Assembly (NCBI GenBank): GCA_001683735.1 | Contig: LUGG01000013.1 | Coordinates: 62,001-126,000, forward strand | Direction: 5' to 3' | Source: Grifola frondosa | Lineage: Eukaryota > Basidiomycota > Agaricomycetes > Polyporales > Grifolaceae | Length of the DNA stretch: 64,000 bases | In this document: positions 36,033-59,531 of the stretch, piece by piece | Layout: each line of letters starts with the position of its first letter | How positions within the stretch are numbered: the stretch's first letter is position 1 | Notes under the pieces: generated by a model | The model's input: only the letters and a program-made list of their open reading frames with translations | Told to the model about the DNA's origin: nothing | The model's database searches: none | Made by a program: the position numbers and the translations under genes

Positions 36033-36035
36033 TGG

Positions 36036-36478
36036 CACGGCAGACGTGAGAGGATATTGAGACTCCGCATATTCGATAACTATACGAATGCATATTGTGA
36101 CCTGCCAGTAACAATATGGGGCTAGCGCAAATGTTGAAGTAGGTTCACAATAACCTCATTGTATCATCACTGTCCGCTTAGTTACCAAAAGAATCTTGAA
36201 TTTTTGGAGTGAATTTTCAGAAACAATATGCTTGTTACTAATGTACGCATCAAATCTTGCATATGAGCCACCTCTTTTGTGGCGTAAAACTTGACCCATT
36301 GTGCAAAATATGCAGTCGCAGCATACGTAAAGACACACTCCGGATATATTTGCTCTGCATGTGACATAAGGAAATGCTTTATGATAATTCTGAGTAATTA
36401 AAAATATTTTCGTATGCGATACATTCTAATTGGCATTCAAGATGTGCGTCGAACATATATGTAGCGGTCCACTCAGCG
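36036..36478 (+). repeat. Left terminal inverted repeat of the giant element
   Basis: By eye it differs from the right terminus at two places over about 443 bp: four T instead of five near 36,277, and CGTATGCG instead of CGTGTGCG near 36,411. Small ORFs inside (60-70 residues) are the same in both termini and are not considered genes. Confidence 0.92.
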
Positions 36479-36760
36479 GCCCGCTTAGTGGCCCACTCAG
36501 CGGCCCGTCCGGCGTCCGAGGAGCCCGTTGAGCACAGAGACGAGTCACGGGTACGGGCGTGCAGTGCGGTGTGGGCGCAAGCATAGAGTGTGGACGGAGG
36601 CAGCTGCGGGCATGGGGCACAGGGGTGCAGTGTGGGGCGTGGGCACATACGATGGTGCGTGCGGAGTGTGAGTGTGGATGAGTCGCGCGGGCATGGGTAC
36701 AGGCACGAGCACAGGCATGCGGTGCAGTGCAGTGCGAACGCAGACGTGGAGTGCGAACGG
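36466..36760. repeat. GC-rich subterminal repeats, left end
   Basis: Three closely spaced copies of a CCACTCAGCGGCCCG-like motif lie at 36,468-36,508. The mirror arrangement GGGCCGCTGAGGGGG occurs inside the right terminus at about 59,060-59,095. A purine-rich GTGCAG/GTGTGG-rich tract follows to 36,760. Such subterminal repeats are where CACTA transposases usually bind; here that is inference. Confidence 0.6.
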
Positions 36761-36928
36761 ATCATATAGTTCAGACATCATACATCATCCAGACACTGTT
36801 ACATATGTACGCTTCAAGGTCTTACAGCAGCATGAACGAGATATGGAGGCGACGACAACGGAAGGCGGCGAGCGGCGATGAGATATTGAAAGATGACACG
36901 AGCCGGGGAGGAGGGAGGGGGGGGAACC

Positions 36929-37236
36929 TCAACATATCACACTCCCTTGACCCTTCAACTTCTCGATGAGTGCTTCTCTCAGCTGCCATCGAAGTTTTCA
37001 ATGGGGAATCAATTAAATGATTAAATAACACATACCGATACAAGCATGAGGTGCTCCTCCTCGAGGGGGTCAGGGCGCTTAGGAGCAGGGCCCAATGGCT
37101 TCGAGATCTTTGACAACAATTCATTCAGCGAACGAATGACTATACAAGATATTAGTAAGGTGTTGAAAAGGGAGGCTTTACTTTACTTACACATCTCGCT
37201 CTGAGCGTTAGAAATTTCCTGGTCTTTGGGAGACAT
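36929..37236 (-). CDS. Very small protein gene near the left terminus
   Basis: Three exons join in frame: MSPKDQEISNAQSEM, then RSLNELLSKISKPLGPAPKR and PDPLEEEHLMLVS, then REALIEKLKGQGSVIC and a stop. The introns begin GTAAGTAAAG and GTATGTGTTA and end TATAG and GGCAG. The product would be about 67 residues, charged and helix-forming, with no cysteine pairs or membrane segment. A TATA-like CTATATAAC lies about 60 bp upstream. I do not recognise the protein. Its place just inside the transposon end and its clean gene structure suggest an element-encoded accessory protein, for example a DNA- or transposase-binding factor, but that is inference. Confidence 0.55.
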
Positions 37237-37447
37237 GATGGGTTTACAGGGGAAAGACGCGATGAATGAAAACAAGAGGCAGTCATGTAGTTATATAGTT
37301 GGTCAGCACCATCTGATCTCCGATGCATCTTGTCGGAGATATGCTAAGCATATGACTTTGCCGAGATCCCGATCCCTGAAAAGTAAAACTTGCCAAGATC
37401 CGATGTAAAAGGCTCCGCGGGCACGACCGCAATTTAGAACATCATCT

Positions 37448-38325
37448 GCTGCGAGAACACGTCAATTGGGAGAAGAACGGGCGAAGACGATTGAACACGT
37501 ACCCAATGTGTTCAATAAGGGCGCGACGGGGTTTTGAGAATCGGCCGTGAGACCTTTTCAGTTAAAAACGGGGCGAAGGTCATGGAACACGTACCGCGAC
37601 GGCGTTTTGAGAATATGAATACTATCGCGAGAACACGTCAATGAGAGAAGAACGGGCGAAGACAATTGACCACGTACACTGTATTCGACAAGGTCACGCC
37701 GGTGTTTTGAGAATACCATCTGCCGCGAGAACACGTCAATTGGGAAAAGAACGGGCGAAGACGATTGAACACGTACCCCAATGTGTTCAATAAGGGCGCG
37801 ACGGGGTTTTGAGAATCGGCCGTGAGACCTTTTCAGTTAAAAACGGGGCGAAGGTCATGGAACATGTACCGCGACGGCGTTTTGAGAATATGAATACTTA
37901 TCGCGAGAACACGTCAATTGAGAGAAGAACGGGCGAAGATCATGGAACACATACTCAAGGGGGCAACGGCATTTTGAGAATATATCTGCCGTGAGAACAC
38001 GTCAATTGAGAGAACGGGCGAAGACAATTGACCGCGTACCAATGTATTCGACAAGGGCACGACGGCGTTTTGAGAATGCTATCTGCCGCGAGACCACGTC
38101 AATTGAGAGAATGGGCGAAGACGATCGAACACATACTCAAGGGGGCAACGGCATTTTGAGAACATATCTGCCGCGAGAACACGTCAATTGAGAGAACGGG
38201 CGAAGACAATTGACCACGTACCAATGTATTCCGACAAGGGCACGACGGTGTCTTGAGAATACTATTTGCCGCGAGACCTTTTCACAGCTGAGAGAACAGG
38301 GCGAAGACAAATTGAGCACGTACAC
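37448..38325. repeat. Minisatellite of about nine ~90-110-bp units
   Basis: Repeats share the core GCGAGAACACGTCAATTG, then GAACGGGCGAAGAC, a CACGTAC box and GACGGCGTTTTGAGAAT. Copies begin near 37,451, 37,626, 37,717, 37,900, 37,991, 38,089, 38,172 and 38,270, with a variant form GTGAGACCTTTTCAG near 37,550 and 37,820. A higher-order doublet (37,451-37,620 and 37,717-37,890) is almost identical. It lies directly upstream of the small plus-strand gene, so it may act as its upstream regulatory region or as internal transposase binding sites. Confidence 0.8.
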
Positions 38326-38340
38326 CATATAAAAGACGAC
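38326..38340 (+). promoter_or_regulatory. TATA-like box upstream of small plus-strand gene
   Basis: CACCATATAAAAGACG lies about 130 bp before the ATG at 38,461, directly after the minisatellite. Confidence 0.45.
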
Positions 38341-38460
38341 GGCATCGAGCTCGTTAACTTCAGCGCCTCAACGCTATCTAGTTCCACCTACAATCTGTTA
38401 GTGCGCCCTCGATTTCTGAAACTAAAACTAAAACAATTACTCACCATTATATATAGCAAT

Positions 38461-38866: not shown

Positions 38867-38989
38867 AGCATAATTACAATATGTATACTACGGTGTCCGC
38901 GTAACACATTTCGCCGAGGGGTTTTCGCCGAGGGGTTCAAACGAGACCTGTGAATATTGAATGAGTGCAAATCAACTAACACTACATCG

Positions 38990-39617
38990 AACACCGCACC
39001 TTTTCAGAAAGAGGGTTCAGCAGCACGAAACAACACAGGAAATAATAGGCGGCATATTTACCATGATGGTGGTGCTGTTGAGGGTAGCGGTAGGGATTGA
39101 CATGAGAAGACGGACATCGCAGGTTGTAATGATCTCCTGGAAGAGCTGAGTGGGATGGGAATATTGGAAGAATAGGAACCAGACCTAACGTAACGTTAGT
39201 AACAAACAAGCGGTGTTCAACTGATTCGACTTACGATTAAACCGATTATGAGCACTATAATGCTCTGGGTGAAACGGTAGCGACAGGTGGTGGACTTCGG
39301 CACAGGACGAAATGTCGCAGAAGAGGGTGCCGCAGTATCTTCAATGTGAAGTTAGCAGAAACTACCAAAGATATTAAATGGGGGAACTCACCCTCTCGCA
39401 AAGTCAGACGGGAAAATGCGTTACAAATGTTGGTGATCTTGGATGGGGGAAATACCGTGGGCGAATCATTACTGGAATCAGCTTCTTGAACATCTCCGCG
39501 GGCACGAAGGCGTGGTTGATGCTGCATGGAGCATCGAGGACAGACACAGGTAATGATCGACATATCTGTATTAATTAATTCAGCCAACGCCGACACTATC
39601 AAGTACACTGACAACAC
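38990..39617 (-). CDS. Unidentified candidate gene downstream of WD40 gene
   Basis: An open stretch reads MQHQPRLRARGDVQEADSSN and continues to NAFSRLTLRE before a donor GTGAGTTCC. After an acceptor at ATTGAAG it continues TAAPSSATFRPVPKS and a hydrophobic IIVLIIGLIV, which may be a membrane helix. A third block near 39,010-39,170 is rich in His, Pro and Ser. Frame joins are plausible but not certain. The family is not recognised; it could also be the 3' end of a longer WD40 transcript. Confidence 0.3.
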
Positions 39618-39802
39618 ACCTGCAGGTGTTCAACACCAGCGTTACTTATATTCTGAGTCGTTAAGTCAGTGTTCAACACTGAAGCACGATAAAAGGAATG
39701 ACTGACTCGAAGCAAAGCATATCCATTTCATGTATTTAAGCAGAAGACAAAGGCCAAAAAGCACTAGACTAAATCCATGACGGATGGTGGCGGAACGACT
39801 AA

Positions 39803-41843
39803 CTACGATTGGCCTGTAATTTTCCTACGCAAAACAATTAGAATAATCTGAAGCTTGTGGATACCTGCGCTAAGCAAATCGAGAACCAGAAAGAGGTGTT
39901 CGTTAAGAATAGTCACGGCCGTAGCAGTCGCAATAACAATAAAAACAATGTGGCGTCGGTGGAGCTCCGTAGCAGATTTCTCGTGGACTATGGCATCGTT
40001 CCGATCGGCAGGTGGCTGACAACCTCGAGGTCAGCTCTGCTCGCAAGAGCAACTAATGGACTCACCGTCGACCACACTTTGATGTCGGTCGAACCCAAAC
40101 CCGATGATCCTGTGACCACCGACAAAGTCTGGCTACCGCGAAGTTGCCTTCGACAATGTCAATACGAATGATTCAGATGAAAACAAAAAAAAATACTTAC
40201 CGCGACAACTTGAACTAGTGCACCAGCTGCAGTGTAGATGTCAATGACGGTATTACAATTAAAAGAATCAACACTTACGGGGACCATGCGTCAACGATGC
40301 AATCAGATGCCCATTGCGCCGATCGTAGACTCTCGCGAAGCCATCATCGCCGCCACTTACAATCCATCTGCTCCGTGATCCTGTGGTAACCACTTGCATC
40401 GGGTAGTTCTGTGATATTGGGTATGGAAAAGTCTGCACACGTTCTAAAGATGGGAAACTGTAATGGTCAAGTCCATCGAGCAGATTCGACACGATCAACG
40501 ATGTCTCGTCCTCACTCAGAATGGCGTGACCGCTGTCGAAACAAATTCAGATCATTTGAAACAAATATCAGAAACAGCCGCTCACATTCGAGTGGGTATC
40601 TCCTTAGCCCACTTCAACGCCCATGGTTCTATGCTGTAACACATTCTATAGCTGGATTAGCGTAGCAACATCATAAAAACCCGATGCTTACATTTCATGG
40701 GACTCCAGGTAGAATATAGCGATGCTAGCACCTTTGTCGCAAAAACATATATTCGTTGTAATATATTGACTCCGTGGTCCTTTGCAATTTCAGTAAGAGA
40801 GCCTGCGTTAATCAACTAGTGAGCACCTTAATAAAATGTTTATTAATGTTACGTACCCCCGCTATGAGACAATTTCCACACTCCCGGAATCCCGCCTCCT
40901 ACAGTGGCAACTCTGTTATGAACAGGATCATATGATATGTCCTCAACAGTGCTATCGTGTGCGACTACGATTGACTTGAACTTAAAAGCAGCCTTAAACA
41001 GCTTCATCAGCGAAATATAGTGCGACCATACGAAGGTACGTACGTTAAGGTCGACGCGTTGATATATGTGCAGTGATCCATCGGCACAGCCGAAGATAAA
41101 ACTCATACCACCGCAATTTTCCGTACCCATCCAATGTACGATACTCACCGGTCCGTTGAACAAGCACTTAACTTCTTGCATCTTCTCGTAAGTAGTGAGG
41201 TTCCATATGACCACCAGGGCATCATCACCTACGGAAGTTTATCAGTGATCTAACTGAAAGGTTAAAAAAGAAACGTACGCACCACCACTCAACAAAACGG
41301 AGCCATCTGGACTGATTGCCAGAGAATTTAAACTCCTCGTATGACGACTTAACGTCTTCTCTAGTTTAAACTACGGAACAAATGCGACTGAACCCCTGAA
41401 ATTTGCTGCCTGAAGAGCGTGGCACGCACCGTTGTTGGGATAGATTCCGTCATAGCTGCTGCTGAAAGGACCAGCTGTGAGTGCATTTCATGTCGTTTTA
41501 GTAGCGTGGATGACACAATAATGCATGTTCGTGAGCGCACCTAAACAAATACGTAGCAAGATAATAAAAATTCAATGTTGCGTCGTCATCGGAACATACA
41601 ACGCTGGACGACGTACTGAAGACAATTAGGACAGGAACAATCCTCCCAGTCAATGAGGGTTACTGGAGCTAACCAAGTTAGTTGCCTATATTCCGTGCCA
41701 CTTAAAAAAAGGACAAGCTTGAATGCGGAACAATTGACTTTCAGAGTGCCTAGATACGGTATTGTACCATATACAATCAGCACACCCTTCACCGCTCGGT
41801 CTGAACCAGTACCTAAATAGTTAGTGACACCAATCGAACTCAT
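39803..41843 (-). CDS. WD40-repeat protein with C-terminal membrane anchor
   Basis: WD40 blades are recognisable in several exons: RHTRSLNSLAISPDGSVLLS near 41,300, VVIWNLTTYEKMQEVKCLF and FGCADGSLHIYQR around 41,000-41,210, DPVHNRVATVGGGIPGVWKL at 40,870-40,930, then YPMQVVTTGSRSRWIVSGGD and DGFARVYDRRNGHLIASL at 40,270-40,400. A further blade (VVTGSSGLGSTDIKVWS) is near 40,070-40,140. The last exon is hydrophobic (HIVFIVIATATAVTILNEHL) and ends in RRKITGQS, a probable membrane anchor. The start at 41,843 (MSSIGVTNY) is the least certain part. Such anchored WD40 proteins occur in many copies in Agaricomycete genomes, often beside transposons; their role is not known. The gene shares an intergenic region with the divergent gene at 42.6 kb. 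Confidence 0.7.
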
Positions 41844-41989
41844 GTGGTGATTAAAAGAGCGCGTAAGAAAGAAAACAAACTAAAAAAATTAATATTAACA
41901 ATCTAATGTAATTGATTAACAGTCTCATAATATCAATGTATCTAAGTACAACGATCTAACTACAACGATGGAAAGAGTGGAAAGGACGA

Positions 41990-42235
41990 GCAAGAGCGTA
42001 GGCGCCGCACATATAGTCCCCAGAGATGACCGCCTGCCCTAAAATACATCACGTGATCTCCCAAAAAGTTCAGCCACTCCTGCCGTTCACTCCCACGCCA
42101 TCCAGCCAAGCGCCGATCGCTATTAATTGGCAAGTGGCTGAGCGGCCGATAGGTGGCGCTCAAGGAGCACGTGAGCACGTGATGAACTTAGGGCAAGCCG
42201 TTCATCTCAGGACTATATAGGTGGCGCCTATGCTC
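41990..42235. promoter_or_regulatory. Probable bidirectional promoter region with CACGTG motifs
   Basis: The region holds GATGACCGCCTGCCCTAAA next to ATCACGTG, then GAGCACGTGAGCACGTGATG and TTAGGGCAAGCCGTTCATC, i.e. the same motif in the opposite orientation. A very similar arrangement lies at about 53,657-53,800 before another gene of this element. It separates the minus-strand WD40 gene from the plus-strand gene at 42,612. Confidence 0.5.
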
Positions 42236-42470
42236 TTGGTCTTGCTTTTCGCGCTTTCCATCTTCGTTTATACAATTCATTTGTAACACCGATGAGTTAT
42301 TAGATTAGATTAGGCAGTTCTTTAATCCCGCGCGTGTGCTTTTCTCTTTAGACGCGGTACTCCGCTTCCGCCGTGGTTTGTCGGGTTGACCTTGAGGATG
42401 CGGTAGTCTAGATTTTGCTTCGTTCCCGTGTCTTGTAGAAAGTCCATTGGACTCGATGCCAGAACCCGTG

Positions 42471-42611: not shown

Positions 42612-44055
42612 ATGTTGTCCATGTCTTCAGCAAAAGCTCAGCACCTTGTCAACGTCCTTCAAGTCGCCATCGGGATGGTCCGTGACAACCCCCACCTTGT
42701 CGATTCCGCTCACATTGCATTCGCTTCCGGAGTTGCCTGGGTCGATAGCATGTCTGATGGTATGTCGTGATGAATTCTTTTACCGGTGTTACACTGATCT
42801 TTCGCACATTAGAATTGGATCATCGCTTCGCTGGACATACGCAAGACCTTGAGCTTGTCCGGTAAGTCAATGCCTTTACCGTATATATACATATATAATA
42901 TAACTCTCTTTCAGCGACGAGCCTGAAGGGCTAGGGAGGCGGGGTAACGCTACTGTCTCCACCGCGGGGAGAGCTATTCGAAGCGCATCCATCTCTGTGA
43001 TTGATGTGGACGAGTTGGAATATCCTGATGTCGAAGGAGATGAGCTCGCGGACGTCCAGGTATGTAGCCTTTTGAACAGGTAAAGTAATGATGTTAATTA
43101 TGTCTCCACGTTTTCGCAGGATACCCAGGACGTTGCCGAGGAGAGCGCTATCTCTGTGCTTCATGTGGATGAGGTGGAATCCTCTGATGTCGAAAGAGAC
43201 GAGCTCGCGGACGTCCAGGTATGTAGCCCTTCGACCAAATAAAGTAACGATGTTTATTCTGTCTCGATATTCTCGCAGGATACCCAGCCGAAGAAGGAAT
43301 GGGATATCGAGGATGTTGCCGAACACCTGGAAGGATTGTCATTTGCTAGTTCTCCCGATGTGGAGGACGAAGCAAAAAACGCATGGTCAAGGCTTGTGCA
43401 CGTTTGGAAGAAGTACGAGCAATCTAGGGGTTCCGAGTCACGTGTAAGTTGATTTAACTACGTATGTTTGGAACTGACCTGAACTGCTTCAGGTTGGTCG
43501 GTTGGGTGCTGTGAGCAGGCCCATCGCGATCTACAATTGGATGCAGAATCATCGCCCAGCAGGAACGCCGGAGGAGGTAGAAGCCGACCCAGATTTTGGT
43601 AAGAATTGGTTGGAATGGTGGACCGCTATCAATCCCGAGTGGAGACGCAAGGATGGGGTCCTAACTTCGGATAAGGCAAGTGAGCTGGCTGAGTGGAAGC
43701 AACTGGACAAGCGTGGCCCGAGCGGGATCGTCCTTACGCTGTATACGTTATCTTGGTGGGCTCCTCAAGGCGGGGAAGATAAAGACACTCTGTGGTTGTC
43801 CTGCGTCGAGGACGTCAGAGAGGTGGTCGATGATATGCTGAATTTGCGCACCTCCGACTCTGTCCAGACTTCCGCGAATGGGTGAGTATCTCTAGTGCTG
43901 TGTGATGTGATGTTCAGCTAATCCAAATTTGACATTGTAGGTTGAAGAAGCGAAGGGCCTCTGACGCTGGGGCTCGCAAACGGTACGTCGTTTCTTTTTT
44001 ACCAGGTGTTGACTAACAGTAATATACTAATAATTATAGTGTCAAGCATAATTGA
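42612..44055 (+). CDS. Agaricomycete transposon-associated protein of unknown function
   Basis: Nine or so exons join in frame from MLSMSSAKAQHLVNVLQVA to a basic end (KKRRASDAGARKRVKHN). The N-terminal third is helical, the middle is acidic, and the C-terminal half carries the recognisable block IAIYNWMQNHRPAGTPEEVE, then NWLEWWTAINPEWRRKDG, GPSGIVLTLYTLSWWAPQGG and VREVVDDMLNLR. Genes with this Trp-rich pattern are common in Agaricomycete genomes and lie near transposons; I know no assigned function. The basic C-terminus looks like a nuclear localisation signal. A tandem exon duplication lies in the acidic part (see findings). A second in-frame ATG at 42,621 is an alternative start. Confidence 0.7.
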
Positions 44056-44311
44056 ACATTGTCGTCAGCTAGGTTCTGGTGTCATGCGAACTTGTTACGG
44101 ATTAGTCGAGTGTTTTTTGTAATTACGACGTCCTAACTTCGCTATATATTGTAAGATGATTGTGGAACAATTGAAACGTGCTAGCCAAGCTCCACGCCGA
44201 GCAAACCAAATTTCTGACGGCCAAAACAATAGCCACTGGTTGACATTTGTCCGCTCCGCTCCGCATGAGTGTACTTTAACTCTACTGTTCGGTTGCAGGA
44301 CTTACACGAAC

Positions 44312-45887
44312 ATGGACAGCTCTCAATGCCACCCACAACCTTCGTTTCAGCTTGTGAATTCCAAGGTATTTAGTCCCTCCGCCATCAGGTTTGTCGTCGA
44401 GTCAATCCCTGCATAGGTTTCTGGCAGTAGATATCGTGGAAATGCTCCATTTTCAGGTACTGTTTGCCGGAATGAACAGTGCGTTGTAAGTGCTGACGTT
44501 TATCTGTGCGGCATGAACTGATACTGTCCCATTAGAATCCTTCTGCGTCCTTACTCGATCTTCCCCCAGAGCTCCTTATGCAAATATGCGTGAACCTGAG
44601 CAAGGACAGCACCTTCGCACTGTCATCAGTGTGCCGCGCTCTCCACTACTTCGCCCTTCCCTTCTATTTTAAACTCGTCGACTTCTGCATACCTCTGGAA
44701 AGGCCGGTCCCTTGTATCTATCACTAAATCCGGTTTCCATATGCTGGACATCTGGCGCCGATGTCTGTTTTACAGACCTCCCTCAGCGTTACTTTGCTGG
44801 CTCTCCGACTCAGTCGAAGATGCAGTGACTCAAATAGAGTGCCTGAGGCAATTTCTTCAGTTGTCGTCGTGGGACCAGCTGAATCTGATCATTTATTTTG
44901 CTAATATTGTTGGTGTTGAAAAAATCCTCTCGAATCTCATGGTCACGGCTCGGACCGTCGCCTCTCGTCTCCAAGTTTATTCTCTCTGTTCCAGCAAGCC
45001 AAGTCTAGCTGGCCTCCGCGCGATTTCACACACACATCTTCCCTCATCTCTCACTGTGCTCAACCTCGCCACTCCTATCTTATTTTCTCAGCCATTTTTA
45101 GCTTGGACCATCCAAACCATCAACAGCTCTCCGCTTAAAGAGTTATTGCTTCGTAGTATCGGGCTCTCAGCATTTCAGTGGTCACACCTACTTCCTCGCA
45201 TCGGTGTTCCTCGGTTACAATCTCTCGAAGTGGATGGCGGGATGACATTAAACTCACTTTTTCTGTTCCTATATCGACATGCTGAACTACGCCAGCTTCG
45301 TGTCGGTGTCTGGGCTGGCCGACTTCGCTCACCAACTATACATTGTCCCACACTCTCTCACCTGTCCTCCCTGAGCGGTCCCGTGTCATATATCACCCAC
45401 TTTCTCCATCCGCCACCACTTGGTCTTACCCAGCTCACAATCTTACCAAGCGACAACTTCCTTCCTTTCGCCGATGTGCATTTGCAGCTGGCTGCATGCC
45501 TGCACTGTGGCAACTTTCCATTACCATCCCATTCTTTCATGTTCAATTTCTCAGTTGCTGTTGTGGTCAAATACCACTACAGGAACTGTTCTGTCTTACA
45601 TTAACTGCCGATTCCTCAGGAGGGGTAGGTTGCTTCTGTGAAGAATTTCTGGTAAGCAACAAGGTTTATCATATGGTGCTGATTTGAATTGATGGAATAT
45701 GACGAATGCAGGATATTTTACCATCGTGGATCTCTATTCATCCATCTCTATCCGCTCTCAGCTTGTTGGAGGATGAGGGTCCCGATCGGCGGCCTCTAGT
45801 TTTGACCTTGCGCAGTCATTGCCCGCGAGTCAGATCGATAACCGTTGTCAGTGGAACTGTTGCGTTGGAATGGACAAACTCGGAGTA
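44312..45887 (+). CDS. F-box protein
   Basis: An exon starting near 44,536 encodes SASLLDLPPELLMQICVNLS, KDSTFALSSVCRALHYFALP and FYFKLV, the N-terminal pattern of an F-box. A long exon from 44,741 follows with LRQFLQLSSWDQLNLIIYF, SSLTVLNLATPILF, SPLKELLLRSIGLSAFQW and LRQLRVGVWAGRLRS, which look like degenerate leucine-rich repeats. A last exon gives ILPSWISIHPSLSALSLLED and SITVVSGTVALEWTNSE with a stop at 45,885. It would act as a substrate adaptor of an SCF ubiquitin ligase, by family. The first exon (MDSSQCHPQPSFQ at 44,312) and the join around 45,500-45,700 are uncertain; frames change there, so a frameshift is possible. Confidence 0.6.
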
Positions 45888-46479: not shown

Positions 46480-47010
46480 TCAGTCCATCTCCTCAACTTC
46501 GATGTACTCCGGGTCATAGTCGATCCATGCTGTCCACGGTCGCCTCGTGGTTAGGAATGATCATCAAGCGGTTATGTGGGCCATCGAAGCGGACATGAAT
46601 CGTCTCGCCCTCGCGAATGCGCTCGGAGAGGATCATGACTGAAAGCGGGTTGAGCAGCTCGCTCTGGATGGCGCGGTTTAGCGGCCGCGCGCCGTACGTC
46701 GGTGAGTAGCCAATCGACACAAGGTACTGCTTTGCCGCGTCGTCAAGGTCGAGCGCCATCTTGCGCTCCGCGATACGCTCCTGTACCTCCTTGATACGGA
46801 GATCGACGATCTTGAGGACGTTTTCCACGCGACAACGTACACTAAAGTGAAGAATTCTTCAGCACACAGTTCCTAGTGACGAAGGAAACCCACAAGATAC
46901 TCACGAAGATGACGATCTCGTCGATACGGTTGATGAACTCCGCGCCAAGATTGCTCGTCATGATGATGACCGTGTTCTTGAAGTCGACCACGCGTTGGAG
47001 CGACATCAAC
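46480..47010 (-). pseudogene. Hsp104/ClpB C-terminal fragment with internal deletion
   Basis: The part encodes the end of the Hsp104 disaggregase: VVDFKNTVIIMTSNLGA runs directly into EFINRIDEIVIF, skipping the residues that normally separate these two parts of the second AAA+ module. After an intron-like gap come VLKIVDLRIKEVQERIAER, YLVSIGYSPTYGARPLNRAI and LLNPLSVMILSERIREGE. Near the end, a two-base loss after GTGGACAGCATGGAT shifts the frame; in the other frame DYDPEYIEVEEMD and a stop follow, the usual acidic tail. No Walker A or first AAA+ domain is present, so this is a captured, broken fragment of a host gene. Confidence 0.75.
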
Positions 47011-47423
47011 AGTCGGTCAGTTGGTCGCCACGTCGCTGTCAGTGCACAGGCAGGTTGTTGACCTCACCAGGATCGTGAGCTGCAGAGGCAGTGGAGAGCC
47101 GGATCGCGCATAGTCAATTTGATACGCACCGAAGTACCCCTCGGTGCGCTGGCCGCATCCCTGACTGACTGTACTCACATCTTTGTGTTCTTGGTCCGCC
47201 CTTCCTGCCCGACGACCATGATGCATGTCAGCAACCCGGCGTTCGAGCACGCGGCCACTGCGCCAGCCGGCCATTCCAGTGGAATCAGCAAGTTGCAGAA
47301 CAAGGCCTCGTAAGATTTCGTAACCTAAGAGACAATGATGAATATAAGAGCCATAAAGGAACAAGGCCAACAATTAAGTATAAGTGTGATATCCGGCCTC
47401 CCACGACACACAACACCCACTTC
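47011..47423. other. Unassigned stretch between Hsp104 fragment and transposase
   Basis: Open stretches exist on both strands (plus: EHAATAPAGHSSGISKLQNK; minus: EILRGLVLQLADSTGMAG) but neither shows family motifs. It may be further captured host DNA. Confidence 0.35.
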
Positions 47424-50400
47424 AATGGCACCCAAACAGATGCAGCATTGTTACTGTAAAACATATCGCTGCAGTGGGAGCCTTATCACATACAATGAAC
47501 TCCGGAAGCACCAGAGAGCAGACAAAAGCACGGTTAGCACTCGTTAATGATTTTATTGACCATATTTACACTGAAATGCCAATAGGAGTATCAGGATACT
47601 GTCGACCAGATTAATAGACAAATTTTCGATCTTACCTTAAGACATGATGGCGTCCCGCTGATGCAAGGCAGCACGATGTGGGGACACCGTGGAGGCCACA
47701 ATGCCTCTGTTCCTACTTCCGTTCCTGCATCCATTCCCCTTCCCGACATACCTACAACTCCACCCCCTTCATATCCACCTGATACTTCGAATCGCGTGGA
47801 GTGCAAGTCGTACGAAGATTTATACCTATGGGACGTGGAGATCGCATTGCGCATTGAAGCAGTGGCGAAAATGTTCAAACAGGGCATTGCGACAGCCGTT
47901 GGGAGTACAGAATCGCAACATGCCATCAACAGTCTGAGTGCTCAGCTACAGTGGTTCAGGACCACTTACCATTTTCTATCCATCACCCAGCCTTCGTCCA
48001 GCGACGACTCTGCGACTGTGTTGAAGTCCGCGATGCTTGAAACTCTGTTGACAGAGATTAGTCATATCGAGAAATGTGTGTGGCGATTGGAAGGAAGTTC
48101 GGTCAGCAAAACAAGCATAGCAGCGACGTATGACACCGGTACGTTCCAACGAAGATTAAATGATGATGTACTTACAATTATCGCCCAGCTAAATATTTCC
48201 ATCACCCATTTCAAACCACAAGTCCCCTGCTCCTTGTAGCCGTATTCATCGCTCTCGTCTTGAATATCCTGGGACATGTATCGCGACCGTCATGCAATCT
48301 CGTCCTTCGGATGTTGAAGATTCTGCTGCAAAGTATATTCGAGGAGAAAGGTGGCCCTACACAGGCCGAAAGTAGGATCTTACTCAATTTCCCCCGTGAT
48401 ATTCGATCAGTACGCAAGGCCTTCGACATCGAGCCAACCGTAACAATATGGGCTGCTTGTCCTAAATGCTCGTATACGTATGAGCCACAGGAAAATGGAA
48501 ATATTTCCACCTACCCTGCATGCTGTACCCACTGCGCGTTCCCAGATAAACCACCTTGCGGAGCACGTTTGACGACGAGACATGTGCTGAACGGTGAAAG
48601 TGTACGCGTTCCTATTCGGCCGTATCCCGTCCAGGATTTCAACGAATTTGTTGGAGCCTTCTTATCTAGACCTGGGATTGAAGACGCCGTAAGGCGTGGA
48701 GGCACGATCGCCTTGCGCGGTACTGCTAGCAGTGATCTTCACGACATTTGTGATGGCTCTGCATTGCGCGAAATCACAGGGCCCAATGGTAGACCTTTCA
48801 TGGAGTGTCCTGCAGAGGAAGTCAGACTGTTCTGGACACTATCAGCGGATTGGTTCAATCCGTATCTTAACAAAATCGCGGGGAAATCGGTGTCTACCGG
48901 TTCAATTGTAATGACCTGTCCCCTCTTGTCCCCTAGCCTGCAATACCAAGCGGAGAACATCTACTTGGCAGCGATCACTCCTGGCCCGAGAGAACCATCA
49001 CTCGACGAGGTCAATTACTTTCTGAACCCGGTGGTCAGGAAACTCATACCTGCATGGAAAGACGGTGTGTGGTATAACAGGACTCACAATCATCCTCGGG
49101 GACGACTCGCTAGGTCTGCTCTAGCATGTGTTGTGACAGATCTTCCGGGCGCTCGAAAGATCACTGGAATGGCGGGGCACAGTGCGAAACTGTTCTGTTC
49201 GTTGTGCAAGCTGACGAAGGACAATATCAACAACATCGACTATTGGACATGGGAGCGGCAGGATTACAGGGCTACCGGGACTGGACTTACCAGCATCGTA
49301 GAGGCGGCAACTCAGTGGAAGAATGCACCATCGAAGAGGAGAAGGAAGCAAATCTTTGCCCAGTATGGCGTGCGCTATTCGGTGTTAATGGAGCTAGAAT
49401 ACTTCGACTTTCACAAAATATGTTGTTGTCGACGTTATGCACAACATGTTCCTCGGCTTAGCCAAATTTCATGTCAGGAAGGTCCTGGGTATGGATCTCC
49501 CTCAAAATGACGTTGTCGAGGACGAACTGGCACTGACCTCGTCGACAACCCGACAAATGGCTCACGCACGCAGAATTCTGGCATCCGATCCCACGGCGAA
49601 AAAGTTGACAAGCATCACAAAAATTGCATTGCGACTGCTTTGTCGCGAGAGGAAAGTCGACTCTGCCGCCTGGACAAAAACGAAAGAGACGAAGAAAAAG
49701 GTGTTAATCGCTGCATTGTTGGTAAGAGCGTCATACCTGGTGTGTATTCCTCCACTGAGTGTGTCAACAAGGGCTCTCTGCAGTCGAACGGAGATGCAAC
49801 AAGAGCAAGTTTGAAGGAAAGTAATACAATTGAGAACCCTCGCCTGCCGACCGACTGGAAACGATTTTGATCGGAGAGCGCTGGTGGATGAATGTGTTGT
49901 CGCCATGCAAACAAACAATACGACAGCCGACTGGAGTCTTACCAGGAAGGATATTAAGCAGATACAACAGGATATTGCGTGTACGACACGCCCTACAACT
50001 CACACTCCGCCGCCTTCAAGAATCGGATCCAAAGGCCAGGGCAAACTGAAGGCCGATGAATGGAGATCTCTCTTGGAATTTGATCTGCCCGTAACACTTG
50101 TCAGTCTTTGGTGCAAAAGCCGATGTCGAGGAGAAACTCCACAGACGATACGTTACCAGAATCAAGTCGAAAGCACGATGCATCTAGCAATAAGCATGCG
50201 TTGGGGAACCTCGCATCGGACATCACACAAGCACAAACTCCAGTACCTGCACACAATGCACGATTATCTTCGAGATCTGCGGAAACTACTTCCAAATGAA
50301 AACTTACTTCGAATCACCATAACGCTCTCCACATTGCCGAATTCTTCTTGCGCTTTGGACCAGTACATGGATGGTGGATGTTCCCATTTGAACGAATTAT

Positions 50401-51210
50401 AGGGATCCTGCAGCAAGTAAACACCAACCGAAAATTGGGTAAGTGACCCTATGTGCAATCGTAAACTGATACTCAACTTGGTCACGAACAGGTCAGCTGG
50501 AAGTGACTATGCTCCAGACATTCTGCGCCGCTGCTAATATCAAAGCATTTCTCAAACGTGCCAATTGTCCCAGTGCCCTTCAGAAATGTGCTTCTATCAT
50601 TGAAGAGTGTTACCACGAGGATGCACGTGGCACTCTGATAACCGACATACATACCTTGGGTCACAGCATTTTCACCGAATCCACTACGGAACGTGTTGAT
50701 TGGAACAAGCTGACACCTTGGATTGCGAGTTCATCAACTATATGACCACCAACGCAGATGCTCTCACCATGGAAGTTACGGGTTGGGCCTTAAGAGGGCA
50801 GGGATTCCTTCATGACCGATATGTGCTTCGGGGTACCCATACGCCAACTACAAGATATGCGAAAAAAACAGCATAATCTTTTTCCAGTCCGCTCGCGATG
50901 GACCCCTCGTCCCTGGTATAGTTCGGCAGATCTTCTCCATGCTCTCAGGAGACAACTCGACACACCACACACTGAACAGAAGGTTCACTATTTCTTTGCC
51001 GTACACAGATACCTCCCTCCCTCCGAAACTGACCCATTCGAGAAATACGATGACTTCGGAGCTCGTCTTTGGTCGGACAAACTCGCCGACGAAGTTAATA
51101 TCATCCCAGACAATCGCCAAATTTGTCACGGTCTGCGCCGACGGTGGAATGGTAACCACTTCATTCTGAAACCACTGAATCGGGTGAATGCTCTACTTAT
51201 ATTCAATTGA
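47424..51210 (+). CDS. Tnp2-family transposase of the CACTA element
   Basis: Exon 1 begins MAPKQMQHCYCKTYRCSGS and joins across GTTAGC...AATAG to a long second exon; a third begins near 48,176. The Tnp2 core is clear: PVVRKLIPAWKDGVWYNRTH, CVVTDLPGARKITGMAGHSA, LFCSLCKLTKDNINNIDYWT, GVRYSVLMELEYFDF, VDVMHNMFLGLAKFHVRKVL. Further on are RKDIKQIQQDIACTTRP, GKLKADEWRSLLEFDLP, ALHIAEFFLRFGPVHGWWMF and PFERIIGILQQVNTNRKLG. These are the usual Tnp2 blocks, including the Asp-containing DLPGAR and VDVMHN motifs. At 49,415-49,418 an AAAA run puts ELEYFDF and VVVDVMHN in different frames, an apparent one-base insertion. Otherwise introns look canonical. The C-terminal part after 50,750 is less certain. 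The enzyme would cut and join the element ends. Confidence 0.8.
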
Positions 51211-51369: not shown

Positions 51370-53110
51370 TTCACACCTATTCGAAATATCAACAACCGGG
51401 CGAGTCCCATCAAATGAGAAGTACGTACCAGCGACGGAATCTTCATCGCGCACAATGGATTCAAACGATGCTTCTCTCGAGCTGAAAGGCTCCTGAGCCA
51501 ATGATTCTCGTAGAAGTTGATAGGCAATCCTTGTACGGGCAAACGAGACGAATCAGTCCTCAAAGAGGCACAATCCGCTGTAAGACTTGTTGCCCCGCTT
51601 TGGAAACAACTGCGTCCCGAAAGGCACATCATATGATTCAACCGCTTTCCACATCAGTGCAAGCTCCGGGTTGAGCCAACGTATTGCCACTCGACGCACT
51701 CGTTTACCTCGTGATTGAGTCAAACCCTCAGTCTCAGTTTCGTCCGAGCTCATCCCTCCAACTTGAAGAAGCCTATGGATTTCCTTGATGGCGCCCCATT
51801 GTTCCGGATCCTGGGGCTGACACCGTTCGATAATCACGGCTCGTTGATTATACGTCTCCTGGGCCGTCAACGACATCATCACGGCTATTAAGACAAACTC
51901 ACCCCATGTCGTCTTACAGTTCTTCTGGCCTTTACCGCCTTCTCGATTTCCTACTCGAAACTTCGGCGGGTCTCGCAATTGCAGGACATAAATGTCACGA
52001 GTACGTTGCAGTTTTTGGGTACATGTCTTCACCATCCTGTCCATGGACATCGCGACAGAGTCGTATTCGATAGGGGGGTGCTTGTCGGATTTGATCTCAT
52101 CAAGGAATTCGGCGGTCAAAAGAAAAATGACTTCTCTGTTCCAAGATGAACTAGAGGAGATCTCCAGTCCACCAGAGGAGCAGCGATATGGGCCCTGCAC
52201 CATCTCCACATGCGAAGGCTGCGACCAGACCAGATGGAGGAAGGGGAGAAGGAAGATTCTTCTCATGGAGTACACCCTTCCCGCGCAAGTATATTCGAAA
52301 CTTCTCCTATCGATTGAAGCTGTAAGACATGCATTACATGTATCAAAGCAGCGGCACTTACATTAAATAAGTTATGATGTTGACCTCCGGCACGCAATTT
52401 CAGAACTTGTCGTTTCGGGAACGCGGAGCTAGTCGGTGACTCTCTTCGTCAGCCTCATAGCCATCGAGGTGTCACCGTGACGATTCGCCTGAGCCGCTAT
52501 CCCACGCTCAATACCACGAGCTACAGCCTCTTCCACAAGTGCCATAATATGAGCAAAAACTGCCGTCTATGTACGATGCACAATGAGTCTTGTCTTAATA
52601 ACAAAAGCGATCACTTGCCGGAAGATCCGCTGGATGCAATGTCACTGCCGCAGGTGAATCTTCATGAATAGACGACCCTATCCACCTATTAATGTCGGAA
52701 CAGCGGCAATAGCAATGTCTACTCACTTTCAGCATCACGAAGCGCCAATTCTGTATAAAACGGTGAGCATCCCAAGTGAGTTCATTAAGCATCCTCACCT
52801 GGATAAAGGATTGCCTCAATCTCGTCCTGCATACTCTCGTCCTGCATGCTCTCGTCCTGATCTCCTCGCTGGATGGCCGGGGAGTCCGCCTGTTATCACG
52901 TTAGAAAGTAAGATAAATTTGCAAAATAGCATCACTTACAACATAGTCGATCCAGCCATCCCCGTCATCTCGCCGCATGCCACTATTATTAATGTGGTGA
53001 CTATCGCTTGGTAAAGCCATAGTGACTACCTGAATGTACTCACTTAAATAGGATGCGACGAAGACAGTTCCACGACCGATGGTGGCGGCTGTCGGGTCCC
53101 ACAAATAGCA
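51370..53110 (-). CDS. Agaricomycete repeat-associated protein of unknown function
   Basis: The long exon at 51,553-52,275 encodes LLTAEFLDEIKSDKHPPIEY, TWGEFVLIAVMMSLTAQETY, QWGAIKEIHRLLQVGGMSSD and RVAIRWLNPELALMWKAVES, then RGNKSYSGL. A following exon reads SSRLPVQGLPINFYENHWL and LSAREKHRL. This order is familiar from many Agaricomycete hypothetical proteins of repeat-rich regions; I know no function. Likely upstream exons include MALVEEAVARGIERGI near 52,540, DQDESMQDESMQDEIEAILY near 52,840 and TMALPSDSHHINNSGMR near 52,990-53,030. A more distal exon near 53,100 (LWDPTAATIGRGTVFVASYL) may belong too. Frame breaks near 52,440 make the N-terminal structure uncertain. Confidence 0.5.
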
Positions 53111-53952: not shown

Positions 53953-54327
53953 ATGGTCAACGGTAAGTTCACCAAGATTAACCCGCTTGAGACGAACTAT
54001 AAGCCGCCACTCGAGTCAGACATATGGGATAAGTACGTGATAGTAAATCCGCTAATGAAGGCGACAATATTAATTTTCAAAGATCTAGACACGTTCGCTC
54101 CCTTCGCTGGCTCGAATATTAGTAGGTTTCTAATGTCGGGTAGGAAGCCTGTTCGAATGAGTGAATTTTCTATTTCGTCGCGAGTATATTCACATACTCA
54201 CTATGATGCCCAGGTGGCCGTCTTTGATCATGTCTTCCATGTCGGCCGCCTCCAAATATCCAGGAGTATATTCGTAAAAGGGTCGATGATTCTTAGGGTC
54301 GATAACCTAGTTGTCGCGCCGAGGTGA
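53953..54327 (+). CDS. Unidentified 124-residue protein
   Basis: It is a single open exon from MVNGKFTKINPLETNY through LIFKDLDTFAPFAGSNISRF, RVYSHTHYDAQVAVFDHVFH and GSMILRVDNLVVAPR to a stop at 54,325. The pattern of aromatic and hydrophobic residues looks like a folded beta-rich domain. It follows a promoter that matches the one at 42 kb. I do not recognise the family. An intron acceptor at 54,378 suggests a possible longer form, but the frame beyond is doubtful. Confidence 0.5.
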   Translation: MVNGKFTKINPLETNYKPPLESDIWDKYVIVNPLMKATILIFKDLDTFAPFAGSNISRFLMSGRKPVRMSEFSISSRVYSHTHYDAQVAVFDHVFHVGRLQISRSIFVKGSMILRVDNLVVAPR

Positions 54328-54612
54328 TGTGTCTTGTTATTGTGAAATCGTTAACACCCACTTTGCATCCTTTTGACAGGCCAAATGCTGTGGCGATCGC
54401 ATGGAGATCAACGTTGTCGGAAGGACCTATGGTATGTTCGATTTCTCTCATTGGTCTCCAATCTCTGAGCCCCGCATATATAGCGCAATTCGGATCGACT
54501 TTGCTTTCGTGCGCTCCTTTGCCAACCACTCAGTCGTATGCGCTGAGTGGGTGGTGGTCCTTCCTCTGCCGGCAGTTCTTCGTCAACAACAGAGACTGGA
54601 TCCTTTTTTTCT

Positions 54613-55372
54613 TCACCCCTCTAGCCGCAGGGGGGGCAAGGTGAGTCGTAATCGCTTAACCGCAATGTCGTTCTGTGTGATAATCGAAGATGATAAGGCA
54701 TTATGTGGAGGCGGAGGAATGCAGATAGTGAGTCGCGGTCGCTTCACGGATGCCTCATGCTCTTCGTTGTCGCTAATTGAGACCCTGCGCTTTTTTACGA
54801 TGCCTCGTAGGCTCCTCGACATTTGTGTCTGCTCCTTTTGAGCACTAAATAGTGTGAGTTGAATATATTCATATTCATTTCAAGACTGTTGCTTACGCAG
54901 ATAGTAGTACGTTCACGTAGTCAATTTTTTCGGGATATGCTGTCTTTTTCCTGTAGCCGTGCGTTCAAACCACGTAAATCACACAATTCCCTCAGAACGG
55001 AAACATTGAGTTTTTGCAAGTGTGAACGGCGCAGTCCTCCATCCTGTAATGCTGGCTCAGGTTGTGTGCGGCCAAATCCGTCACGCTTTGCATTTTCGAA
55101 CCGTTGGTTAGGTGTTGGGTTTTCATCCGGTGAGCCTAAAATGCATTTGTCAGAGTCCTCGTTATCAACATGAACATTTAACTCACCGCTTGGCACAGGG
55201 TCTTCAAATAATCTGCCTTGGGGATCCTTCCGGGTCCTTTGTTGCTTCGAATTACCTGAGGCCACGTTCTGCACAGTTCGCGCAACTTTATGGCACCGTA
55301 TCGATTGCAAGGCTTCTCTATCGAATTCTGTATACCGAGGATCTCATCTGTGTCTCTAGGTTGGGGAGGCAT
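54613..55372 (-). CDS. Candidate DNA-binding protein with SAP-like repeats
   Basis: Exon 1 starts MPPQPRDTDEILGIQNSIEK and contains IKLRELCRTWPQVIRSNKG and KADYLKTLCQAV. After an intron (GTGAGTTAA...CATTTTAG) the next exon has LQKLNVSVLRELCDLRGLNA. The two LRELC blocks resemble the first helix of SAP DNA-binding motifs. A last exon is basic (SRSLRGIVKKRRVSISDNEE; VKRLRLTLPPLRLEG). Acidic and basic tracts suggest a nuclear protein. It is convergent with the gene at 53,953 and its start lies close to a second gene on the plus strand. The SAP reading is an inference from pattern only. Confidence 0.45.
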
Positions 55373-56200: not shown

Positions 56201-56419
56201 GTGAGTGCATTTGCCGGTCGAAAGACCCTTCTAACGAATTTTCTAGGCCCTGAGCCGCTCGGTGCTATGTGAAAATTGTACTATATCAGGTTATGTAATC
56301 ATGTACATTCGCGCGACCGTGTGTTCGAATTGAAGTCACGTGTTTGCCGTGAGTGCATTAAATGCATGGAGGGAGAGCCTGAAGTGCGCGGATTCAGCAC
56401 ACATACATAAGAGTAAGAA

Positions 56420-58938
56420 ATGGGAAGAGTAAGTAATCTGAGATTATCCTTTAACAAGGTTTTAAATTGAATATGTATCTAGCTTGATCCCTCGCGTTTC
56501 CTCGACGTTGAAGCTGAGGTTGTTGACGATGATGACGAGCAGAGCTCTGATGAAGAAGACAAGGAAGACGTAAGCGCTTAGATTGTTGGCTGCTTTGGAG
56601 ATGCTAATAATGTTTATAATAGGTTTTATAGACGACGAAGGAGAGACGACGTCGGAACAAGGGGGGCATCCAAGTCTGCTTCCGTTGGATGGACTTGTGA
56701 AGGCAACGAAAGGAAGAGTTGGAGCTATCGCCCAAGGATTAACTGCGAGGTATGCCCCACATATACCGAAGAATACGTCAATTTGGACGACATTCCGCAA
56801 CAATTTCTCCTTCCAACATCCTCGGACCCCACACTTTGGGTGGTTCACGTCGAAGTAAGTGCTGCACTTGCGTGGTTTCAGTGCACTCACAAGTTTCGAT
56901 AGATGGGAAGGGAGGAGGATGCATCTTACAGCTGTGCACACAGTTGTTTGACTTGGAACTGTCTCTAACGACCTAATATCCGCCTTCATGAACCCTCGCT
57001 TTCCAGGTCAAGTATACCTCGAAGGTTCATCTCTGCGCTATGCGCAGCTCCGTGCATTCATTCCTACTTTCTATATTCGTCGCGATTACTCGGTAGTGGA
57101 GGTGGAAGAACGAACACGTCTGTTGCATGTTGGATCTGATGAGGATTTCGACATTAAGAAGGCCCAATGGGTTCGCATTCGTAAAGGACCTTACAAGTCT
57201 GACATTGCCTTCCTTGTCGACACAGTGGGTTATATGGCCAAGCTGAATGTCGTTCCCCGCGTCGTGATGGAAAGGGCTTTGGGCGCCCATCGTCCCCCAC
57301 CCAAGCTCTTCGATCCTGTGATAGTAGGGGCGACCTATGGCAGTTCCTCGGTAATTCAAAAGGATCAAACTTACAAGTTCAAAGGGCGAACCTTTAACAA
57401 GTTCGGCCTTGAAGAGCTCATCATCCCAATCACGGATATTCAAGATTCTCGTCCGGTTATCACTCTCGCTGAAATTATAGGTTTCTTCGAGGCCAGCCCC
57501 AAAAACGAGTTAAACATCGATATTGCGGAAACTGCCAGGATCCTGAATCAGGACTCTCTCCGAACACTTTCGTTTGGAGACCGGGTACGCGTGACTCATG
57601 GCGAGCAGCAAGGACTCTTTGGATACTTCCATGGTTTTGAGGAGACCAGCGCACTTGTGCAGGTCGAGCATAATGATGTCGTGGACGGTATGCTTATCCC
57701 GACGGCACAGTTACAGCGTTACTTCAAGCTCGGCGACTCGGTGAAAGTCCGCTCCGGTCAATACAAAGATCGCAGCGGTATGATTTCGAGGTTAGATGGG
57801 CTGTTCGTTTACATCGTTGAGAGGGGCACGGACGAACATGTAAGCCTTGATTGCTGACTACGAGTAAAAAATGTGGCTGATGTTTCCGTGCTTAGCTTCA
57901 GGTCCTCGCTGCAAATCTGGATTTCTGCGTGCCAGACTTTGCGTTGGTTGCGCAACCTTCTTCAAGCACTTCGGTGGATGGTCTGTCGCGTCGGGATCCT
58001 AAGGATCCCATTGTCGGCCGATCAGTCCACGTTTCCAACGGACCACTCAAAGGGCAGCGCGGTATCGTCAAGAGCGTTCGCGACTCTACTGTTGAGTTGG
58101 AAGTGACCTCCCAACTCATCGTGCATGGGAGTGGTACACAGTTGGTGCAGCGAGAGGATCTACTGTTGGTCCAGTACGTGTACTTTAACTTGTTGAAGAC
58201 AGCTCACTTAAATCTCCTTTTTAGCCGCAGGGGCCGTCTTCGGCCGCTCTCATGGGTCCTATCTACAGAAGATCTCGACTTTTCGATGAATTCCACAGTC
58301 ATCCCTCCTGTAAGGGCATCGACACCTATTCCCGAGGTCACTGCGACGTCGTCAACCTCAGGCACCGAGAGCAGTGCGCTCAGTCCTGCATGGAACCCGT
58401 TAACGTCAAACCTAGAGCCGAATCCTCCAGAGCTGAGTCCTCCAGGGCAGAGTATCTCAGAGAGCTCAATCGGTGCTAACGGCAAGTAGCTGGTACTTCA
58501 TTTAACTGTTATTGAATTTTTGCCCCAGGCCCGATGAATGATCATTGGCTCTTTGTGGAGATTCTTCGCCCTACTTTGGGGAAGAATGCTATCATGTTCA
58601 CGTTATCTGGTACCAACGGAAACGATAGGTTCATGGATGGTGCGTATGAAGGTCAGACTGTGCGCACTGTCCCTGGTATGCCTCTGGATCCAAATGCGGG
58701 CACCTGCCTCGTTCAACTACTAACGAAGGCTGGTACCCGAATTCACGCGCCTGTCCGTTTCCTGTCGGAGATGCCACCATTGCGCGGTGACCGCGCAATG
58801 ATTATTGCTGGTGATCGCGTTGGTGACGTTGTGAATGTCAGGCAAATCATGGATGGCGAAGCACAAGTGGCGCATAGCAATCAGAGGAAGGTGACGAAGA
58901 TTGAGACTCGTTTCCTTGTGAAGGTGTCCGGCCGATAG
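56420..58938 (+). CDS. Spt5-like protein with NGN and KOW domains
   Basis: Spt5 is the transcription elongation factor that clamps RNA polymerase II. Exon 1 is a short MGR, then comes an acidic segment (FLDVEAEVVDDDDEQSSDEE) like the Spt5 N-terminus. SDPTLWVVHV at about 56,830 starts an NGN-type domain that continues LCTQLFDLELSLTT and ends FPGQVYLEGSSLRYAQLRAF. KOW motifs follow: WVRIRKGPYKSDIAFLVDT, GDRVRVTHGEQQGLFGYF, GDSVKVRSGQYKDRSGMI and GRSVHVSNGPLKGQRGIV. A Ser/Pro-rich part and a final KOW-like region (58,534-58,938) close the gene. Between 56,905 and 57,000 the NGN exon changes frame twice, so this copy may be damaged. It diverges strongly from a housekeeping Spt5 and sits 150 bp from the right terminus of the transposon. 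Confidence 0.72.
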
Positions 58939-59087
58939 TATGATATCTACTTAACGTGTATGCAACGATTTCGAGATATACGTGGTTATGAGTGACCAAA
59001 AATGTGCTTCAATGAAGATGTAATCCCTAGCTCCCTTGATTATCCTAGAGGGGCATTAAGTGGGCCGCTGAGGGGGCCGCTGAGGGG
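58939..59087. other. Spacer between Spt5-like gene and right terminus
   Basis: It ends in GGGCCGCTGAGGGGG repeats that mirror the left subterminal motif. No gene is present. Confidence 0.5.
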
Positions 59088-59531
59088 CGCTGAGTGGACC
59101 GCTACATATATGTTCGACGCACATCTTGAATGCCAATTAGAATGTATCGCACACGAAAATATTTTTAATTACTCAGAATTATCATAAAGCATTTCCTTAT
59201 GTCACATGCAGAGCAAATATATCCGGAGTGTGTCTTTACGTATGCTGCGACTGCATATTTTGCACAATGGGTCAAGTTTTACGCCACAAAAAGAGGTGGC
59301 TCATATGCAAGATTTGATGCGTACATTAGTAACAAGCATATTGTTTCTGAAAATTCACTCCAAAAATTCAAGATTCTTTTGGTAACTAAGCGGACAGTGA
59401 TGATACAATGAGGTTATTGTGAACCTACTTCAACATTTGCGCTAGCCCCATATTGTTACTGGCAGGTCACAATATGCATTCGTATAGTTATCGAATATGC
59501 GGAGTCTCAATATCCTCTCACGTCTGCCGTG
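59088..59531 (-). repeat. Right terminal inverted repeat of the giant element
   Basis: It is the reverse complement of 36,036-36,478 with one substitution and one 1-bp length difference by eye. It is followed by the target duplication TGG and then array sequence GGGGAACAGTCCCGTTTAGC. Confidence 0.92.

What the first reader, a model, noticed from the sequence alone, without database searches (positions are those of the whole stretch)
36036..59531. A 23.5-kb CACTA-type transposon loaded with many non-transposase genes
Seen in sequence: ~443-bp inverted termini with two differences, ends CACGG...CCGTG, TGG on both sides, a Tnp2 transposase inside, and an empty site readable from sister repeat units. 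Known: 3-bp target duplications, CAC-type ends and Tnp2 define CACTA elements. Inference: the element moved recently as one unit with WD40, F-box, Spt5-like, Hsp104-fragment and several unknown genes. The cargo size and long termini make it look like a basidiomycete giant mobile element rather than a normal CACTA.
Basis: partly seen in the sequence, partly recalled or inferred. Interest (0 to 1): 0.9.

Follow-up and report, generated by a model that had tools for sequence, protein, structure and literature searches.

The report
Giant gene-carrying CACTA transposons in maitake
A mushroom genome holds two related families of very large jumping genes, about 23 and 43 kb long, that share a set of conserved extra genes besides the enzyme that moves them, some resembling proteins that control transcription and chromatin.

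Summary
Window 36036-59531 is one transposon: 471-bp inverted termini (98.5% alike), ends CACGG...CCGTG, TGG on both sides, an empty site readable in sister repeat units. The genome is Grifola frondosa. The terminus occurs four times in it: here, and at both ends of a second copy on contig C32, collinear over its length. That copy is 34.8 kb because two other repeats inserted into it later; without them it is 23.9 kb. So the whole block is the unit that moved.

A diverged relative on contig C19 begins CACTA, is about 43 kb long (inferred across a contig break) with about 4.5-kb termini, and has two insertions with 3-bp duplications (AAG, with an exact empty site; TGT). Both families share six homologous genes in different order: Tnp2, SPT5-like, WD40, F-box, two unknowns. 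Silent sites are near saturation while amino-acid change is limited, so selection has kept the set. The relative also carries a KDM3-like JmjC gene. Most differences between the two window-type copies are CpG decay, which suggests host methylation.

Verdict: a CACTA/EnSpm element of a giant multi-gene variant. That the kit counters silencing is plausible, unproven. Every assembled Tnp2 has frame breaks.

The parts
36033..36035 (.). target-site duplication TGG, left
   Evidence: empty site in sister units
59532..59534 (.). target-site duplication TGG, right
36036..36506 (+). left terminal inverted repeat (471 bp)
   Evidence: 465/472 columns identical to the right one; four places in the genome
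59062..59531 (-). right terminal inverted repeat
36465..36505 (+). 12-bp subterminal repeats (CGGCCCACTCAR type), about 430-470 bp from the end; the C19 family has them at about 454-494 bp
   Evidence: 11 matches with up to 3 mismatches against 1.05 expected; with up to 2 mismatches only at element ends in the window, C32 and C19 stretches
59051..59101 (-). 12-bp subterminal repeats, right end
37419..38323 (.). degenerate minisatellite; one nested insertion of copy 2 lies at its counterpart
40274..41373 (-). WD40 gene, part conserved with the C19 element (script's model spans 39017-42101, 20 exons, ends uncertain)
   Evidence: Pfam WD40 4e-12; model; C19 homologue
42621..44416 (+). gene of unknown function (428-aa model); relatives at 37 merged loci of the genome
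44442..45604 (+). F-box gene
46514..47274 (-). ClpB/Hsp104 C-terminal fragment
   Evidence: ClpB_D2-small 5e-24, 9e-26 on the model; not found in the C19 element
46933..50745 (+). Tnp2 transposase gene (domain 48812-49216; conserved with C19 from 47398 to 50673); frame change near 49.41-49.43 kb
51417..52397 (-). unknown gene A, shared with the C19 element; no Pfam match
54181..55354 (-). unknown gene B, shared with the C19 element; the C19 protein has a weak SAP-like match
   Evidence: (E 0.01, below cut-off)
56462..58938 (+). SPT5-like gene (NCBI protein P0001, 687 aa)
9606..9926 (+). sister repeat unit that shows the empty site

Best explanation
A giant CACTA/EnSpm DNA transposon. Shown: inverted CAC...GTG termini with subterminal 12-bp repeats, a Tnp2 gene, a 3-bp duplication and an empty site; a second whole-length copy elsewhere; a diverged family with the same core genes and the same kind of ends. 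Inferred: Tnp2 binds the termini and subterminal repeats, cuts the 23.5-kb block out and pastes it at a staggered 3-bp cut, so that the other genes travel with it. The core (Tnp2, SPT5-like, WD40, F-box, unknown A and B) is an inherited kit of the lineage, kept by selection; the ClpB fragment, the KDM3-like JmjC gene and the GH16-like remnant are lineage-specific gains. Most likely role of the kit, inferred only: to keep a large element transcribed or mobile in a host that methylates it.
For: Termini, TSD, empty site. Terminus at 4 places = 2 full copies; collinear at 98.5% over 23,263 aligned sites. The extra length of copy 2 is two insertions with 7-8 bp repeats at their edges, one a foldback repeat with 1.76-kb arms, the other holding a member of a genome repeat family. 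C19 family: ends CACTA..., TSD AAG with an exact empty site (159/159 and 96/96 bases), second insertion with TGT on both sides. Six shared genes; pN 0.23-0.39 against pS 0.69-0.84. Outside the three assembled elements, gene A and the F-box gave no match and WD40 one weak match. CpG decay: 219 of 251 C/G-to-T/A differences of known context, window to C32, are at CpG.
Against: Transposase frames are broken in all three assembled copies, so present autonomy is not shown. Copy 2 has no TSD and a 1128-bp inverted flank. The 43-kb length rests on joining contigs C19 and C12 by flank logic. Order and strand of the shared genes differ between families. No expression data. The window element itself has no JmjC gene.
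Confidence: 0.87

Rival explanations
1. Passive capture: a CACTA element that merely swallowed host genes (as Pack-type CACTA or Tgm elements do), with no function for the cargo.
For: The ClpB fragment in the window element and the GH16-like remnant in the C19 terminus look like such captures. The unknown 428-aa gene belongs to a family with 37 merged loci in the genome.
Against: Six genes are shared by two families that are 41-65% identical in protein over the compared codons and all show pN well below pS. Passengers should have decayed. Caveat: tblastx picks conserved stretches and so favours low pN.
Confidence: 0.1
2. Segmental duplication of a host block between inverted repeats, not transposition.
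For: Only two copies of the window type; copy 2 has an inverted flank and no TSD.
Against: Window copy has TGG duplication and an empty site; C19 family has AAG with an exact empty site; no flanking sequence is shared between C12 and C32.
Confidence: 0.03
3. Anti-silencing module as the main purpose: the SPT5-like protein helps polymerase II through methylated or compacted copies, and in relatives a KDM3-like demethylase removes H3K9 methylation, as TET/JBP genes are thought to do in other fungal transposons.
For: CpG decay of copies. JmjC protein matches KDM3B (E 5e-20). JmjC loci cluster with Tnp2 loci: 5 of 11 within 40 kb against 0.43 expected, 0 of 5000 random placements. SPT5-like gene under purifying selection. 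Precedent: PMC12730594.
Against: No activity test; the window element has no JmjC; WD40 and F-box genes need other roles; JmjC and 428-family loci are partly copies of each other, so they are not independent.
Confidence: 0.35

Closest known systems
CACTA/EnSpm (CMCT clade) DNA transposons
   Same: CAC...GTG ends, 3-bp TSD (criteria in PMC12730594, section 3.1 read), Tnp2 transposase, subterminal repeats.
   Different: 471-bp and about 4.5-kb termini; 23.5 and about 43 kb; shared core of six genes. PMC6431247 (passages) cites 16-20 kb EnSpm with 4-5 ORFs in the alga Chondrus crispus; PMC5738225 (passages) gives 2 to over 30 kb for Gypsy, Copia and CACTA elements in barley.
TET/JBP-carrying fungal DNA transposons (Kyakuja, Dileera, Plavaka, EnSpm and others)
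   Same: A fungal DNA transposon with a captured chromatin-type dioxygenase next to its transposase (C19 element: JmjC).
   Different: A JmjC/KDM3-type protein rather than TET/JBP, plus SPT5-like, WD40 and F-box genes. For Polyporales that paper lists only Kyakuja as TET+ (section 3.2 read).
Starship giant elements
   Same: Tens of kb, a mobile unit with changing cargo around a stable core.
   Different: Starships use a tyrosine recombinase captain (recalled; PMC13066641 passages mention captain genes); here a Tnp2 transposase and no tyrosine recombinase hit in six frames.
Styx of Zymoseptoria
   Same: Fungal DNA transposon that took up extra coding sequences (PMC10853768, passages).
   Different: 7.9 kb, four ORFs, IS3EU-derived.

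Membership tests
CACTA/EnSpm | 5'-CAC...GTG-3' termini | tested here: met
   CACGG...CCGTG in the window; CACTAGAG...CTCTAGTG in the C19 family
CACTA/EnSpm | 3-bp target-site duplication | tested here: met
   TGG; AAG with empty site and TGT. Not met at copy 2 on C32 (TGT/ACA)
CACTA/EnSpm | Tnp2-type transposase | tested here: met
   PF02992, 37 bits against cut-off 28.6; in C19 only 17.9 bits, below cut-off, but 46-65% identical to the window protein by segment
CACTA/EnSpm | catalytic D, D, E with C(2)C and H(3-4)H motifs | tested here: inconclusive
   By eye only: DWFNP, DLPGARK, CSLC and FERIIG in the window translation, HHNALH and FEQIIG in C19; no alignment to characterised transposases was made
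CACTA/EnSpm | transposase cuts these termini | not testable with these tools
   needs an assay
Starship | tyrosine-recombinase captain gene | tested here: not met
   no such Pfam match in six frames of the window element at E <= 0.1
Polinton/Maverick | protein-primed DNA polymerase B and integrase, 5-6 bp TSD (TSD length recalled) | tested here: not met
   no Pfam match; TSD is 3 bp
Helitron | Rep/helicase, no TSD, no TIR | tested here: not met
   long TIR and TSD; no Pfam match
Plavaka | TGT..ACA or CATCA..TGATG termini | tested here: not met
   termini CACGG/CACTA; criteria from PMC12730594 section 3.2

The most novel reading that the evidence does not exclude
Grifola holds a lineage of giant CACTA elements that is a basidiomycete counterpart of the Starships in life style: a Tnp2 engine plus a conserved, selected gene kit that works on the host's transcription and chromatin machinery (SPT5-like elongation factor, in relatives a KDM3-type histone demethylase, F-box and WD40 proteins) to escape methylation-based silencing, with modules exchanged among many elements of the genome.
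Probability: 0.35. Interest if true: 0.88.

Novelty: new variant of a known kind. Interest (0 to 1): 0.73.

Why it matters
Cut-and-paste CACTA elements are usually small machines with one or two genes (PMC6431247 passages speak of the usual 1-2 ORFs). Here two families, diverged to near-saturation at silent sites, share six genes and keep them under selection. That makes a testable case of a DDE transposon that evolved a self-protection or regulatory kit. A transposon-borne SPT5 paralogue and a KDM3-like demethylase would be new weapons beside TET/JBP. Because the elements break assemblies (contigs C19, C12, C6 and C26 end inside them), such giants may be missed in many mushroom genomes.

Tried and rejected
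Concerted evolution of the termini: one site differs between the copies but agrees within each; it is a CpG, so two independent decays explain it; dropped.

A real 34.8-kb element on C32: rejected; the excess is two later insertions.

Copy 2 inserted at the centre of a palindrome: rejected; other members of that foldback repeat are not palindromic there. The cause of the 1128-bp inverted flank stays open.

Programmed frameshift in Tnp2: both families change frame at the same place but with opposite sign, which argues against one programmed shift; 11 of 104 retrieved proteins matched the motif and run straight through. Assembly error cannot be excluded.

Structure predictions of the 428-family core and of gene A: mean pLDDT 51.7 and 36.5 from single sequences, not used; no fold search was run. 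Viral contigs: no relative of Tnp2 or of the SPT5-like protein. Protein database: the SPT5-like query found 4 proteins, 3 of them Grifola; gene A found one, Grifola; both searches have limited reach. Tnp2 found 99 proteins at E <= 1e-20, mostly metagenomic, best 51%, without context. Codon-usage gene finding was weak; the models come from a home-made script and are approximate.

Association test: 14 of the 33 JmjC rows were entered, the other 19 lie at the same loci; contig ends were ignored; four JmjC/428 pairs have almost equal spacing and are probably copies of one unit. Tnp2 with the 428 family is weak once the three elements are removed (1 of 20 within 10 kb, 1578 of 5000 random draws as good; 5 of 20 within 40 kb, 54 of 5000). 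The alignment left out window 37881-37902 and 42130-42248.
Full report
Observation. The terminal repeats, ends, TGG duplication and empty site are as described. The window is contig C12:62001-126000 of a 39.06-Mb genome in 64 contigs.

Second copy. The 471-bp terminus has four matches in the genome, all four candidates scored: two here and two on C32 at 287878 and 322662. The 34,785 bp between them contain the whole window element in order plus two blocks of 4,273 and 6,642 bp. The blocks have 7-8 bp repeats at their edges. The first has 1.76-kb inverted arms (99.7%); the second holds minisatellites and a member of a repeat family with 79 matches. Without them copy 2 is 23,870 bp. Over 23,263 aligned sites the copies differ at 350.

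CpG decay. Of the 350 differences, 259 are C/G in the window and T/A in C32; of the 251 with known context, 219 are at CpG, where 25% of C/G sites are CpG. The opposite direction has 46, of which 30 are at CpG; 45 are transversions. Without CpG transitions 101 remain, 0.43%. I infer methylation-driven decay, stronger in C32.

Copy 2 oddity. C32 has no 3-bp duplication. Its right flank is an inverted copy (1,129 columns, 99.8%) of its left flank, whereas other members of that repeat continue with different sequence. I take this as a later repair event at the right end.

Diverged family. A Tnp2 search gave 38 matches, 23 merged loci. Those on C19 are 46-65% identical by segment, and an SPT5-like match lies 18 kb away. 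The C19 stretch starts CACTAGAGACGG at 1034744. This end recurs at the starts of contigs C12, C6 and C26, 99.75%, 99.6% and 100% identical over 2,006, 2,006 and 568 columns. C19 ends inside a 2.5-kb inverted copy of its own 16749-19286 (99.3%), exactly the part that follows the 2 kb at the start of C12. The left flank of C19 (159/159) and the flank of C12 (96/96, including AAG) meet in an uninterrupted sequence at C19:969.6 kb. So C19 and C12 hold the two ends of one insertion with TSD AAG, about 43.35 kb long with about 4.5-kb termini (inference). C6 and C26 fit as the ends of a second one, TSD TGT; chance agreement of 3 bases is 1 in 64.

Shared kit. tblastn finds WD40, F-box, Tnp2, gene A, gene B and SPT5-like of the window element in the C19 element; the 428-family, the ClpB fragment and one piece of gene B give no match there. 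Order and strands differ: C19 has SPT5-like, JmjC, WD40, A, F-box, Tnp2 (inverted), B. pN/pS: WD40 0.23/0.83 (282 codons), F-box 0.38/0.77 (238), Tnp2 0.30/0.72 (809; dN/dS 0.15), A 0.32/0.82 (235), B 0.39/0.84 (140), SPT5-like 0.33/0.69 (541; dN/dS 0.22). Genome searches: gene A 12 of 12 matches and F-box 7 of 7 lie in the three elements; WD40 13 of 14, the other (34%, E 1e-4) being 3.5 kb from a Tnp2 locus on C24; SPT5-like 4 of 7, the rest on C3 and C16 at 31-49% (the F-box and WD40 queries were C19 models).

JmjC and wider lineage. The C19 element carries a JmjC protein (Pfam 6e-7) closest in the PDB to KDM3B (5e-20); HVD and a later H of the iron site are seen by eye. JmjC occurs at 12 merged loci; of the 11 outside C19, 3 lie within 10 kb and 5 within 40 kb of a Tnp2 locus (random means 0.11 and 0.43; 1 and 0 of 5000 draws as good), and 4 lie within 2.5 kb of a 428-family gene (0.06; 0 of 5000). 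More giant elements with exchanged modules are likely; I could not fetch them.

SPT5-like protein. The C19 protein matches solved SPT5 (9e-19) with Spt5_N, KOW2 and KOW5 above Pfam's cut-offs and a weak NGN.

Transposase state. The window Tnp2 has a clean 447-aa exon, then a frame change near 49.41-49.43 kb that C32 shares; C32 has more breaks; C19 has frame changes, one at the same place with the opposite sign. So the copies may now need a helper, or the assembly errs. The near-identical C19-type ends still suggest recent movement.

Mechanism. Cut-and-paste by Tnp2 at a 3-bp stagger (from family knowledge). The kit genes travel as part of the unit. A counter-silencing role fits CpG decay, the SPT5 and JmjC genes and the TET/JBP precedent (PMC12730594, outline and sections 3.1 and 3.2 read), but is inference.

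Literature. Nine searches of the held open-access library listed no paper on such an element; EnSpm with SPT5, transposon and fungi gave none. Subscription papers are not held.

Noticed in passing
window 5303-36035 and 59532-64000: Tandem array of about 5-kb units, 75-87% alike in most comparisons; the unit at 59.6-64 kb has a DUF6533 domain (E 2e-12). The element sits in this array.
   Followed up: partly
L005:6750-7877 and L009:2663-3790: 1128-bp inverted flank around copy 2, a member of a foldback repeat family with 79 matches in the genome.
   Followed up: partly
L045 (C19:969300-969800): Exact empty site of the 43-kb element, inverted and 65 kb away on the same contig: a paralogue or another haplotype.
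   Followed up: no
L033:4744-9286 (C19 terminus): The 4.5-kb terminus holds a GH16-like remnant (Pfam 5e-4, below cut-off), KRE6/SKN1-like by eye.
   Followed up: no
window 49410-49430; C19 near 1058.9 kb: Tnp2 changes frame at the same place in both families, with opposite sign.
   Followed up: partly
C13:1296.8k, C32:404.9k, C3:2738.6k, C48:73.8k: JmjC gene 1421-1429 bp from a 428-family gene at four loci, likely copies of one unit.
   Followed up: partly
   Followed up: no
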